Assembly: GCA_021018815.1 (NCBI GenBank)
Contig: JAITYX010000008.1
Location: 2,912,001-2,976,000 of the forward strand
Length of the DNA stretch: 64,000 nucleotides
Direction of reading: 5' to 3'
Source: Talinum fruticosum
Taxonomy: Eukaryota > Streptophyta > Magnoliopsida > Caryophyllales > Talinaceae
A program made the position numbers and the translations under genes. Every line of letters starts with the position of its first letter. The stretch's first letter is position 1. Below the pieces are notes generated by a model. The model saw only the letters and a list, made by a program, of their open reading frames with translations, was not told where the DNA came from and did not search any database. Shown piece after piece: positions 21,201 to 54,415 of the stretch.

Positions 21201-22312
21201 AGAATGGAGGATCCTAAGGACAACATTTGACCTTGACAGTCATGGATAGCCATGTAACAGAAACCAAGTAAATGACATGAAAATGAAACAAGCCCAAATT
21301 TAGCAAAGACCCTTATCCTTCTTCTCTATCTCAACATCTTCAAGTCATGCCAAGATGCCATACGAAACTCATATAACAGTGGTAAGACCCAGTAAATGTG
21401 TGATAAGATATCATCTATAAATCAAAGCATAACCAAGTTCCAATGCCCCCACAATGACTAGCTATAATTTCATCCTAAACCCTATGAAAAGATCAAAATT
21501 TTAGGTTAAACATAACCCCAATATCAGAGCATTCTACAAGCTCAAAATGCAAAAAATTCTCAATCATGAATCATCAGATCCCATTCAGATAGCAAAAACA
21601 TTTCCAATGATCAAACCCACCTCCTCTTGTTTCCTCCAATCGCCAAAATTAGATTTTCAAAAAAATTCTCTCTTCTTGGGCTACTAACACAAGTCTGTAC
21701 CAAGTCAACTCAATCTCCAACATTTTATCATTATTATTCATCAGCATGAACACTTGAAATGCAAGGAATCCCCAACTCGTAAAATAACAAGAATGCTAGG
21801 TACCCATTTCAAATGAGAAAGCCCAAAAGAAAAACCAGCTAAAATGACAGAAAAATGAAACCCAGAAACCATTTTTCTTCAATTTTGACTCTTTGACCAA
21901 CCTGGCCGGGGAATAAACCGGGTGAATCGAGCAAGCTCGCTGGACTAAGCCCCGGTGGAATCATGAAAACCCCCTTGCTGCTGAGAAACAACCAGACCGG
22001 CCGGTCGGCTCTGCCTGAACCGGAGATGGTCCGGTTCGCCGTTGTCGGCCGCGGGAATATTGGGGCGAGGGGAGGCCATGGCGCCGGCTAATAACTGGGA
22101 GAAAGAACGACAATCAGAATCCGGGTCGTTCTCGGAGAAGAAGCTGGAGACCAGGGTCATCGGGCCGGGGCTAGCCCCGAACCCGGACCCGGAAAAAGGG
22201 AGTCGACCCCAGCACGGGGTGGGAGGGTTATAGTCGGCCGCTGGAGCTGGCCCACCGTCATCCGAGGCGGCGGCGGCGGTTCCGTGGAGGTCACGGCATC
22301 GTTTTCCGCCAT
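18213..22312 (-). CDS. WRKY3/4-like: Group I WRKY transcription factor, WRKY3/4 type, ~513 aa (two indels in exon 1)
   Basis: Four exons on the minus strand: 22312-21902, 21137-20446, 20353-20195 and 18492-18213, 1542 nt. It is a nuclear DNA-binding protein expected to bind W-box (TTGACC/T) sites. Two WRKYGQK motifs lie at about residues 234-240 and 406-412, each followed by a C2H2 zinc-binding pattern (CTHVSCPVKK...HNH and CTHQGCNVRK...HNH), which defines group I. The N-terminus has the conserved FSQLLAGAMASP block and the PPGLSPASLLDSP serine-proline cluster of likely MAP-kinase sites. The C-terminus ends LRLKEERIT, as in WRKY3/4. Exon 1 has two breaks: one base missing in the G/C runs at 22167-22178, and one extra base in the run at 21966-21974. 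They cancel, so the full length is normal. Sequencing error is likelier than a pseudogene. Confidence 0.9.
18493..20194 (-). other. GC-AG intron interrupting the C-terminal WRKY domain
   Basis: The intron falls after PYPR in the second WRKY domain, the position conserved across plant WRKY genes, in phase 2 (AG|G). The donor reads CCGAG|GCAAGTAAC, so GC replaces GT while the rest matches the donor consensus perfectly. The acceptor is CAACAG|GAGC. Using the nearby GT two bases downstream would destroy the reading frame into SYYKCTH, so the GC site is the only one that gives a WRKY domain. Confidence 0.85.
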
Positions 22313-51729: not shown

Positions 51730-54415
51730 CTATCCTACTCGACGCATAAATCTCCTAGCTTGCCTATATGCTACCCTCAAATATGCCCCAAACCTTGTCA
51801 AATCAACGGTAACATTTTGATCCTTCAAATATACCTTCTTCAAAAGTGTCCATCCCTTTTTCTGAATTGCCATTGGATTTTTAAGTATTGGGTCATAAAT
51901 GTTGTACTTTTCAGCCAAACTACTCTCTTCGGGTTTCACTTTGTATTCCAAGTACTTCAAACCCATTTCCTTAGCAGGATTCCCATGACACAACTTGGCA
52001 ATTGAATCCGTCCCAATGGGCACCACTTGTATGAAAATCGAGCCAGGTTGAAGAAACAAGAGGTGTGTCATGGCGGCTCCATGAACCCCTACCATTACAT
52101 GACTTCGGCTCATTAGCCTATAAGATTCTCTCAACGACGTGTTGGGTCTGGGTTCGAACAAGGTCACATGAAAGCCTAGTTCCTCTGCCATGGTTTTCAC
52201 TTCGGCTTGGTTCAACAAGACCCTGCCCACAGCACCCGTTCGAACCACCAAAACCAATTTGGGTCGGCCCACTGATTTCGGTGCCACGGGAGGTGGCCTT
52301 GACCGTAGGCCTTGTCAAGGAAAGCATGGAAATGGGCTAATGTAGTTGAGTTGGGCATCAACTTTGGGTCAATTGTCATGAACCCATGTGAGACTAGGCC
52401 GATAGTGGCGGACCTAAAACAATGTAAACCGGTGTCATTCTCAAGGGTCACAATTGGGTGCTTGCTAAACGCACCAAGGAGATTAGCATACTTCCCGATC
52501 CACCAATCACGGCCCTCGGATATCACGAGGACTACATCTTGATCAGCCAACAACATCGATCGGAGGGTGATGAAGAGGGGAGAAACCCATCATTGAACTC
52601 ATGGAAGAAGTTGCCGGTGTACCCTCCCGCACTGAATACAAGGGCCCGAGCATCATGAACAACGTTGCACGCTATTGGGCCTAGTGGGCCGGGCTTTAAG
52701 GTGATCTCCTTGATTTTTGACATGGTGAAGTTCTCCCACTTGCGAGGATAGGGCCTGATTTTCTCAACGAAACGCTTGGGCCGGGTCGGCCCGATAGCGT
52801 AGAAGGTGGAGGTGGCGGGGTTCAAGACAGTTGGGCCGTTGATGGAGCAGGTATCGAAGTGATAGTGGGACCGGTCGCAGGTGATCTTTGACTTGCCACG
52901 TGGTCTCGAACTTTGTGGGTCCCATCGAATCGCCGGCTTGTGTTTTACAGGGCCACCATCTGCAGGGTATTTTAAAGAATATTGATTAATTTTTCCAAAA
53001 GAAACACGTGTGAAAGAGAATCCTCGATTCAAAAAACATATCTTTTGCTAGCATAAACATGTTATAGATTTTCATTAATGCGAAATTATACCTTATGCAT
53101 AGTAAATTGTAATATATATTAACGTGATAATAATTTAAGAAAAAATGCACATTTTATGAAAAAAAAAATATGTATTTGAATTAGAGTAGAGGGGATTAGT
53201 CACTAACATGCCATTAATTTGAAGTAATTCTAGATATAGTCGTTGATTAGTGTGTACCCAGAAAACAATTTGTAAGTAGCAATTTATTGAAAAGAGAATT
53301 AGTGGGGCTTAATCCTATTCCTAGGTAAATTAGGAAGGCAGTTTTAGAAAAAAACCAATTAGCGAGGCAAGATCCACGAGATACTCAAAATATTGGAACC
53401 CAATCACTAGAGATCACGCTACTTAACTTGCAATTAAAGCATTTGTTTTATTAAAATATCATTATGGGCTCGTTTCAATTAAAGCATTTAAAATTAGTGG
53501 TGTGAAAATACGCATTAAGGTTATTTTTTAGTTAAAGACACAATTACCATTTTGAAGGATGTTTAGAATAGTTGGAGTCATTATAATGAGATCAATAAGG
53601 TCGATGGTTTTTTCTTTTTATATAATAGAAAGGTCCACATATATGATATATTATTTATTTAAACATCTCGCTTATATGGGGAGGGAAGTGAATGATTTTT
53701 TTAATGATAGTTATCCATAAAATTATTTGTTTTCATATTTGGAGATGAGTTTACCTTCAATTAAATCATAATGCAATTATACATTAATGCATAATAAATT
53801 ACTAATCACCTGGACTTAATACTCCCTTGCTATAGTATTTATATACTAATTAAATACTTGTATACATTTAAGGGTAATATATATTATTAATTTATCCAAC
53901 AATGTCTTCTTACATATATATATTTTGAAATCACATTTTCAATTAAAAATTCTAAATAATTCGCAAAAATGAATAGTTTTCCTCTTTTTCCCAAAAAAAA
54001 ATTGAATCGCAAACCCCCAATAAAACTATACAATCCCCAGTCCCCAACCGCCACCCCACAAAAATAAAAATAAAAGTCATGGAGGCGTAAGGTGCAGAGG
54101 GGGATTAGGGCAACCCTCCTCCTCCCATCTCTATCTCCATCTCCATCTCCGTCTCCATCTCTACTAATTCTTATTTTAAAAAACGAAGGAAAAAGTAGTG
54201 GGCAGAAGCAGTACCTTGATATACTGTGAAGGAAGAAGGCACAGGTAGCGTAGATAGGGGGAAGGGAGATTCACACGTCGGAAAAGAGAGCCGAAAACCA
54301 GCAGAGAGAATGACAAGAACAGCATCACCGTTACGTGAGCTTTCACCATCGCCGATCCCTTCTTCAACGACATCGTCTGATTACCCTTTGCTGCATCACC
54401 CTCGTCTATCGCCAT
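51730..54415 (-). CDS. GT61 family glycosyltransferase, copy 4, ~477 aa (three one-base breaks)
   Basis: Exon 1 (54415-54215) encodes a membrane anchor (about residues 27-45). Exon 2 (52959-51730) carries the catalytic region: KITCDRSHYHFDTC, GGYTGNFFHEFNDGF, GVHGAAMTHLLFLQPGS and PEESSLAEKY. The reading frame is broken three times, each time by one missing base: the C5 run at 54257-54261 (the frame must shift there to reach the shared CAA|G junction), the C4 run at 52577-52580 (DGFLP|LFITLRS) and the C3 run at 52288-52290 (GHLP|VAPKS). With these allowed for, all family motifs align with copy 3 and the length is about 477. Real decay of a duplicate is possible, but residues between the breaks remain well conserved. 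The alternative start at 54373 lies closer to the anchor. Confidence 0.82.

What the first reader, a model, noticed from the sequence alone, without database searches (positions are those of the whole stretch)
21966..54261. Eight single-base indels in or beside G/C runs break five genes while the encoded proteins stay conserved
Conserved proteins are split by one-base shifts at 22167-22178 and 21966-21974 (WRKY), 26327-26331 (MinE), 41115-41117 (GT61-1), 44619-44622 (GT61-2), and 52288-52290, 52577-52580 and 54257-54261 (GT61-4). Every break is in or beside a G/C run of 3-5. Seven look like a lost base and one like a gained base. On both sides the family motifs are intact and the corrected lengths equal family norms. 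Independent mutations would not all pick G/C runs, so uncorrected homopolymer errors in the assembly are the likely cause. This matters because an automatic annotation would report false pseudogenes or split genes here.
Basis: partly seen in the sequence, partly recalled or inferred. Interest (0 to 1): 0.75.

Follow-up and report, generated by a model that had tools for sequence, protein, structure and literature searches.

The report
Sequencing errors mimicking broken plant genes
Six plant genes in this stretch look broken, most likely because single bases were miscounted, mostly in or beside short runs of one repeated letter, when the genome was read and assembled; the same fault shows in other gene families of the genome, so this looks like an ordinary data artefact and not biology.

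Summary
Frameshift-aware alignment to up to 120 relatives confirms seven of the eight listed shifts; the eighth (GT61-4 exon 1) rests on splice phase and one ortholog. A ninth was missed at the end of GT61-3, so six genes are broken, including all four GT61 copies. The first WRKY break most likely lies at 22188-22197, not 22167-22178. MinE is 4 bases short against 117 of 120 relatives. Closeness to G/C runs of 3 or more is above chance: 7 of 8 best positions, 17% expected, P 3e-5. The window's own assembly (620 Mb, 264 contigs) points to the cause: 21 of 44 GRAS loci carry 25 abutting frame breaks, 21 of the lost-base type, and HSP70 matches carry 14, 13 of that type. The six window proteins have no in-frame stop, and WRKY and MinE keep all 165 and 74 near-invariant residues. 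Uncorrected single-base assembly errors are by far the best explanation. Not every family is hit: 10 long HSP70 exons have no break, and I accept none among 80 Cpn60 matches. No reads were available.

The parts
18213..22312 (-). WRKY3/4-like group I transcription factor gene (exons 22312-21902, 21137-20446, 20353-20195, 18492-18213), two frame breaks in exon 1
   Evidence: Pfam WRKY 3.8e-28 on exon 2; 86% to P0241; exon borders
22188..22197 (-). WRKY break a: one base lost, most likely at the T5|CC|G3 junction (coding strand) and not at 22167-22178
21970..21976 (-). WRKY break b: one base gained in a G run; brings back the frame changed by break a
25963..28334 (-). chloroplast MinE gene (exons 28334-28245 and 26567-25963), one frame break
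   Evidence: Pfam MinE 1.2e-12; 91-92% to P0121/P0122
26318..26339 (-). MinE break, 90% interval (holds a C5 run); net 4 bases short against 117 of 120 relatives
40422..42352 (-). GT61-1 gene (exons 42352-42238, 41670-40422)
   Evidence: Pfam Glyco_transf_61 6.2e-13
41110..41119 (-). GT61-1 break: one base lost beside a C3 run
44264..45656 (-). GT61-2 gene, main exon only (no first exon identified)
   Evidence: Pfam 1.2e-11
44616..44622 (-). GT61-2 break: one base lost in or beside a G4 run
50014..51471 (-).
   Evidence: Pfam 6.3e-12; 75% to P0001; last codons read
50066..50073 (-).
   Evidence: 119 of 120 relatives; P0001 C-terminus
51730..54373 (-). GT61-4 gene (exons 54373-54215, 52959-51730), three frame breaks
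   Evidence: 74-78% to Carnegiea P0002 in exon 2 over three frames, 66% in exon 1
52576..52585 (-). GT61-4 break a: one base lost at a C4 run
   Evidence: 120 of 120 relatives
52265..52307 (-). GT61-4 break b: one base lost; best position 52292 near a C3 run, 90% interval over all relatives wide
   Evidence: 115 of 119 aligned relatives
54255..54265 (-). GT61-4 exon-1 break near a C5 run: from splice phase plus one ortholog; net length not fixed; not flagged by the scan
14473..17195 (+). control gene, EDR2_C family, 8 exons, 1197 nt, frame intact
30870..36278 (+). control gene, DUF155 (RMND1/Sif2-like), 7 exons, 382 aa, frame intact
37083..37502 (-). control exon, DUF538, 420 nt, frame intact

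Best explanation
The breaks are uncorrected single-base errors of the assembly, mostly one base dropped in or next to short homopolymer runs, with G/C runs probably hit more often per run than A/T runs. The underlying nuclear genes (WRKY3/4-like, chloroplast MinE, four tandem GT61 genes of a Caryophyllales plant) are most likely intact in the plant. Shown: the frame changes, their sign, their closeness to runs, the absence of in-frame stops in the six proteins, and the same pattern in GRAS and HSP70 genes elsewhere in this assembly. Inferred: that reads would show the other run length, and that the reads were long and nanopore-like.
For: Relatives on both sides of each break. Run enrichment 7 of 8, P 3.0e-5. 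Loss bias 8:1 among the nine breaks (P 0.039; the exon-1 break counted as lost, modulo three). No in-frame stop in the six proteins read with X at the breaks. WRKY deviates at 0 of 165 and MinE at 0 of 74 columns conserved in 95% of relatives. GRAS: 25 abutting breaks in 47.0 kb of matched coding DNA, 21 of 44 loci, 21:4. Nine of those 21 loci had DNA in hand: a shift in 10 of 10 intact paralogs each, 8 losses and 1 gain, 6 of 9 at G/C runs of 3 or more against a base rate of 0.139 (P 4.1e-4), and no stop in their pieces away from the break. HSP70: 14 breaks, 13:1. Lost:gained over both families 34:5, P 2.4e-6. The C14 WRKY3/4 copy reads through the break-a site in one frame but changes frame downstream. 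PMC8486125 (passages): C and G homopolymers are sequenced worse than A and T, and deletions become predominant as runs lengthen. PMC12007338 (passages): most deletion errors in a draft long-read assembly follow runs of four to five.
Against: No reads or transcripts of this plant were available. Ten long HSP70 exons (16.8 kb) have no break, and I accept none among 80 Cpn60 matches (17.9 kb; the one pair within 60 nt looks like an intron), so the error rate is very uneven; short Cpn60 exons also make breaks hard to see. The three control genes in the window (2768 nt) have none; all nine breaks falling elsewhere has P 0.06 by length. The window has more breaks than the GRAS+HSP70 rate predicts (9 against 3.8, P 0.016). 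MinE is -4, not -1. Six of the 14 HSP70 breaks lie in a C17 tandem cluster, where some copies have in-frame stops and may be truly decayed. PMC12007338 found A/T runs hit about twice as often as G/C, opposite to this window. Three of the nine GRAS sites (L056, L065, L068) are not at a G/C run.
Confidence: 0.93

Rival explanations
1. The breaks are true mutations: one or more of these genes, most likely members of the GT61 tandem array, are recent pseudogenes disabled by slippage in runs.
For: Tandem arrays do decay; GT61-4 has three breaks, and GT61-3 deviates at 12 of 108 columns conserved at 90%, a fraction reached by only 4 of 120 relatives. The window also holds what looks like a real relic, a truncated ANXUR-like fragment. 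A second close WRKY3/4 copy exists on C14.
Against: No in-frame stop in six genes; if 10 substitutions go with each indel (assumed) about 3.5 nonsense changes are expected, P(0) 0.03, but only 0.17 with 5 per indel. WRKY and MinE are fully conserved at near-invariant columns. The same kind of lesion is in 21 of 44 GRAS loci. The C14 WRKY copy changes frame too.
Confidence: 0.05
2. A mixture (compatible with the best explanation for most sites): most breaks are errors, but one or two differences, above all the 4-base MinE change and a GT61-4 lesion, are partly genuine.
For: The MinE net change is -4 in a loop whose length is fixed in 117 of 120 relatives; one codon may be truly missing. The exon-1 spacing of GT61-4 is not that of its ortholog.
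Against: 3 of 120 MinE relatives also have the shorter loop, so a natural codon loss plus one base error is enough and needs no dead gene.
Confidence: 0.15
3. Programmed ribosomal frameshifting or introns bridge the breaks.
For: X XXY YYZ-like words lie near two of eight sites.
Against: No common signal (6 of 8 have none); at the well-anchored sites the conserved blocks abut within about one residue, leaving no room for an intron; such frameshifting is not known to me in plant nuclear genes of this kind (recalled, not searched).
Confidence: 0.005

Closest known systems
Nanopore homopolymer length errors (PMC8486125, passages seen)
   Same: Length changes at runs, deletions predominate in longer runs, C/G runs worse than A/T
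   Different: That paper is about reads; platform and polishing of this assembly are unknown, and here the errors survive into an assembly
Gene-fragmenting errors in draft long-read assemblies (Kastor, PMC12007338, passages seen)
   Same: Deletions after runs of about four to five create false pseudogenes
   Different: Small genomes studied there; A/T runs predominated there
Likely true pseudogenes in the same assembly (truncated ANXUR-like fragment at 6530-7062; GRAS locus C57:1239k with several in-frame stops)
   Same: Disrupted reading frames
   Different: They show truncation or several in-frame stops, which the six genes here do not

Membership tests
Uncorrected homopolymer errors of an assembly | single-base length changes at homopolymer runs above chance | tested here: met
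   7 of 8 at G/C runs of 3 or more, P 3.0e-5; averaged posteriors weaker, 4.29 of 8 against 1.37; MinE is -4
Uncorrected homopolymer errors of an assembly | found across the genome, whatever the gene | tested here: met
   GRAS 25 breaks, HSP70 14 breaks on many contigs; but none accepted in 17.9 kb of Cpn60 matches
Uncorrected homopolymer errors of an assembly | deletion bias | tested here: met
   8:1 in the window, 34:5 in two families genome-wide
Uncorrected homopolymer errors of an assembly | reads contradict the assembly | not testable with these tools
   no reads held
Pseudogenes | relaxed constraint, in-frame stops | tested here: not met
   0 stops in six proteins; WRKY 0 of 165, MinE 0 of 74 deviations; GT61-3 is at the high end of its family, 12 of 108
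Group I WRKY (WRKY3/4-like) | two WRKY domains and the N-terminal PPGLSPASLLDSP motif (motif recalled, also seen in relatives) | tested here: met
   Pfam WRKY in exon 2; second WRKY domain split over exons 3 and 4 and the motif read directly; relatives
Chloroplast MinE | MinE domain | tested here: met
   PF03776, 1.2e-12; chloroplast targeting only from names of relatives
GT61 (MUCI21/XAT-like) | Glyco_transf_61 domain | tested here: met
   PF04577 in one piece of each of the four genes; substrate not testable

The most novel reading that the evidence does not exclude
The run lengths are true, and this plant really carries a great many one-base frameshifts in conserved genes, tolerated through some transcript-level correction or through a very recent wave of run-slippage mutations.
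Probability: 0.015. Interest if true: 0.85.

Novelty: not a real feature. Interest (0 to 1): 0.12.

Why it matters
Automatic annotation of this assembly would call many false pseudogenes and split genes: 21 of 44 GRAS loci and all four GT61 copies here. Statements about gene loss in this plant should wait for polishing. The sign and run signature give a quick, read-free quality check for other assemblies.

Tried and rejected
The first alignment script used a wrong tblastn option and located nothing; it was replaced. The first read of the spliced proteins had phase mistakes in WRKY and GT61-3, corrected. I first thought that the exon-1 break of GT61-4 lacked motif support (note) and dropped that when P0002 showed it. 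A 122-window scan for further breaks (first exons of MinE, GT61-1 and GT61-3 not included) flagged windows at the eight known sites. It also flagged 11 of 12 relatives at GT61-2 44353, near the end of the relatives' proteins, which I reject as an end effect, and about half of the relatives in four GT61 windows (41511-41670, 41461-41620, 45447-45606, 44747-44906), not accepted because the open frame runs on there or conservation is poor. Five GT61 loci elsewhere in the genome (L002, L005-L008) were looked at by tblastn only: L006 shows a frame change, not followed up. PDB search of the MinE piece: no match. Pfam on eight window ORFs: only DUF538. Ribosomal frameshift words: nothing common. The own-genome search for other MinE copies did not complete, so whether MinE has a second copy is open; a KCS search did not complete either. 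One literature search for an assembly of this plant group (listing only) identified none; (listing only) was not used.
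Full report
What the window is. It is nuclear DNA of a Caryophyllales plant: the best named relatives are Carnegiea gigantea for GT61-3 (62%) and MinE (91%), and Chenopodium quinoa for WRKY (77%, below two unnamed proteins at 86%). The window is C8:2912001-2976000 of an unnamed assembly of 620,015,648 bases in 264 contigs. On the minus strand lie a WRKY3/4-like gene, the chloroplast-division gene MinE and four GT61 genes (Pfam).

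Checking the breaks. At eight sites I aligned the DNA around the break to up to 120 relatives with a model that allows skipped or missing bases. Relatives showing the change, of those aligned: WRKY-a lost 112 of 119 (61 also show a gain); WRKY-b gained 111 of 115 (11 lost); MinE lost 120 of 120; GT61-1 lost 119 of 119; GT61-2 lost 120 of 120; GT61-3 C-terminus lost 119 of 120 (7 gained); GT61-4a lost 120 of 120; GT61-4b lost 115 of 119 (9 gained). One set of 120 relatives, found with GT61-3, served all GT61 genes. The GT61-3 site (C run 50068-50071) was not in the finding; the nearest relative P0001 has RFRGYLETAYRKAKILMDKQG there, which the window continues in the other frame. The ninth site, GT61-4 exon 1, was not, and the scan did not flag it; the frame is open through exon 1, and the change follows from the splice phase and from the Carnegiea ortholog P0002.

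Corrections to the finding. The first WRKY break is most likely at 22188-22197: the eight closest relatives put it at 22192, where relatives read F-S/T-GSGFG and where the copy on C14 reads in one frame. On the coding strand a T5 run ends there and a G3 run starts two bases on. The two WRKY breaks compensate each other. MinE is 4 bases short against 117 of 120 relatives; 3 of 120 have the shorter loop. The spacing at the GT61-4 exon-1 break is 10 residues against 6 in its ortholog, so its net length is only known modulo three.

Are runs really preferred? Positions were taken from the eight closest relatives, without using run information. Seven of eight lie within one base of a G/C run of 3 or more, against 17.2% of coding positions (P 3.0e-5); four of eight for runs of 4 or more against 3.8% (P 1.2e-4). 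Averaging over all relatives blurs the positions and gives 4.29 of 8 against 1.37. A/T runs of 4 or more are also enriched (2.08 of 8 against 0.40, P 0.007). In the coding DNA of the nine genes there are 52 G/C and 83 A/T runs of 4 or more; with 4, 5 or 6 G/C hits against 1 A/T hit, Fisher P is 0.07, 0.03 or 0.013. So a G/C preference is likely but rests on few events.

Error or mutation? Runs alone do not decide this, because slippage during replication also favours runs. There is no in-frame stop in any of the six window proteins. WRKY keeps all 165 and MinE all 74 columns that are 95% conserved, and the four GT61 copies deviate at 3 of 71, 2 of 70, 4 of 71 and 2 of 70 such columns; 20, 23, 7 and 23 of 120 relatives deviate at least as much. 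At the 90% level GT61-3 deviates at 12 of 108, reached by 4 of 120 relatives. The control genes EDR2_C, DUF155 and DUF538 (2768 nt as counted) are intact.

The genome-wide test. A GRAS search of the own assembly gave 73 matches. Grouped into 44 loci, 21 have at least one pair of abutting matches in different frames: 25 breaks, 21 of the lost-base type and 4 of the other, in 47.0 kb of matched coding DNA; 20 loci are full and unbroken in the domain and 3 are partial. In 16 of the 21 broken loci no matched piece holds a stop. Four have one stop each; in the two whose DNA I held (C24, C32) it lies at residue 2 of the downstream piece, ahead of the break; the other two (C30:394k, C16:3985k) were not checked. 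One, C57:1239k, has several and is probably a true pseudogene. For nine of the 21 broken loci the DNA was in hand: alignment to intact GRAS paralogs of the same genome shows a shift in 10 of 10 paralogs each, 8 losses and 1 gain; 6 of 9 lie at G/C runs of 3 or more against a base rate of 13.9% (P 4.1e-4). For one of them (C52) the table of matches gives the opposite sign modulo three; two losses close together would explain both. HSP70 (90 matches) has 14 abutting breaks, 13 of the lost type, in 60.2 kb; 6 of the 14 lie in a tandem cluster on C17, where some copies have stops and may be truly decayed; ten long exons (16.8 kb) have no break. Cpn60/CCT (80 matches, 17.9 kb) has no break that I accept. 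Over GRAS and HSP70 the sign is 34:5 (P 2.4e-6). The two closest WRKY3/4 copies of the genome, C8 and C14, both change frame in exon 1, at different places (the C14 change read from its three-frame translation). A third, more distant copy on C5 (54%) was not examined.

Conclusion. A mostly one-base, deletion-biased, run-associated defect that is found in half of a family of core transcription factors, leaves the codons conserved and recurs across contigs is best read as an assembly defect. It is uneven: the GRAS+HSP70 rate predicts 3.8 breaks for the window's 10.5 kb of coding DNA and 9 are found (P 0.016). The literature fits in kind: in PMC8486125 (passages) C and G runs are sequenced worse than A and T runs, and deletions predominate as runs lengthen; in PMC12007338 (passages) most deletion errors follow runs of four to five, though with A/T ahead of G/C. 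Which platform made this assembly is not known to me.

Noticed in passing
window 6530-7062 (-): Truncated receptor-kinase ectodomain fragment: one frame matches ANXUR1 (PDB 5y96, E 4e-5), followed by DNA with no such open frame (by eye); a frame change inside it does not seem to be at a G/C run. Looks like a true relic.
   Followed up: partly
window 20187-20195 (-): The WRKY intron between exons 3 and 4 appears to use a GC donor (AG|GCAAGT) instead of GT.
   Followed up: no
window 44264-45660 (-): GT61-2 has no first exon that I recognised nearby and carries about 25 extra residues at its C-terminus.
   Followed up: no
   Followed up: no
G000:C17:5.51-5.82 Mb: Tandem HSP70 cluster; two neighbours (5696799 and 5706524) share a frame break at the same profile position, and some copies have stops, so real decay and errors may be mixed there.
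   Followed up: no
GRAS loci: Nine of the 25 breaks fall at profile positions 135-155, on several contigs; a GC-rich conserved motif may be a hot spot for the error, or some of these loci share an inherited break.
   Followed up: no
L006 (G000:C4:129221-133129): A GT61 gene elsewhere in the genome also shows two frames abutting at about 1510-1528 of the locus.
   Followed up: no
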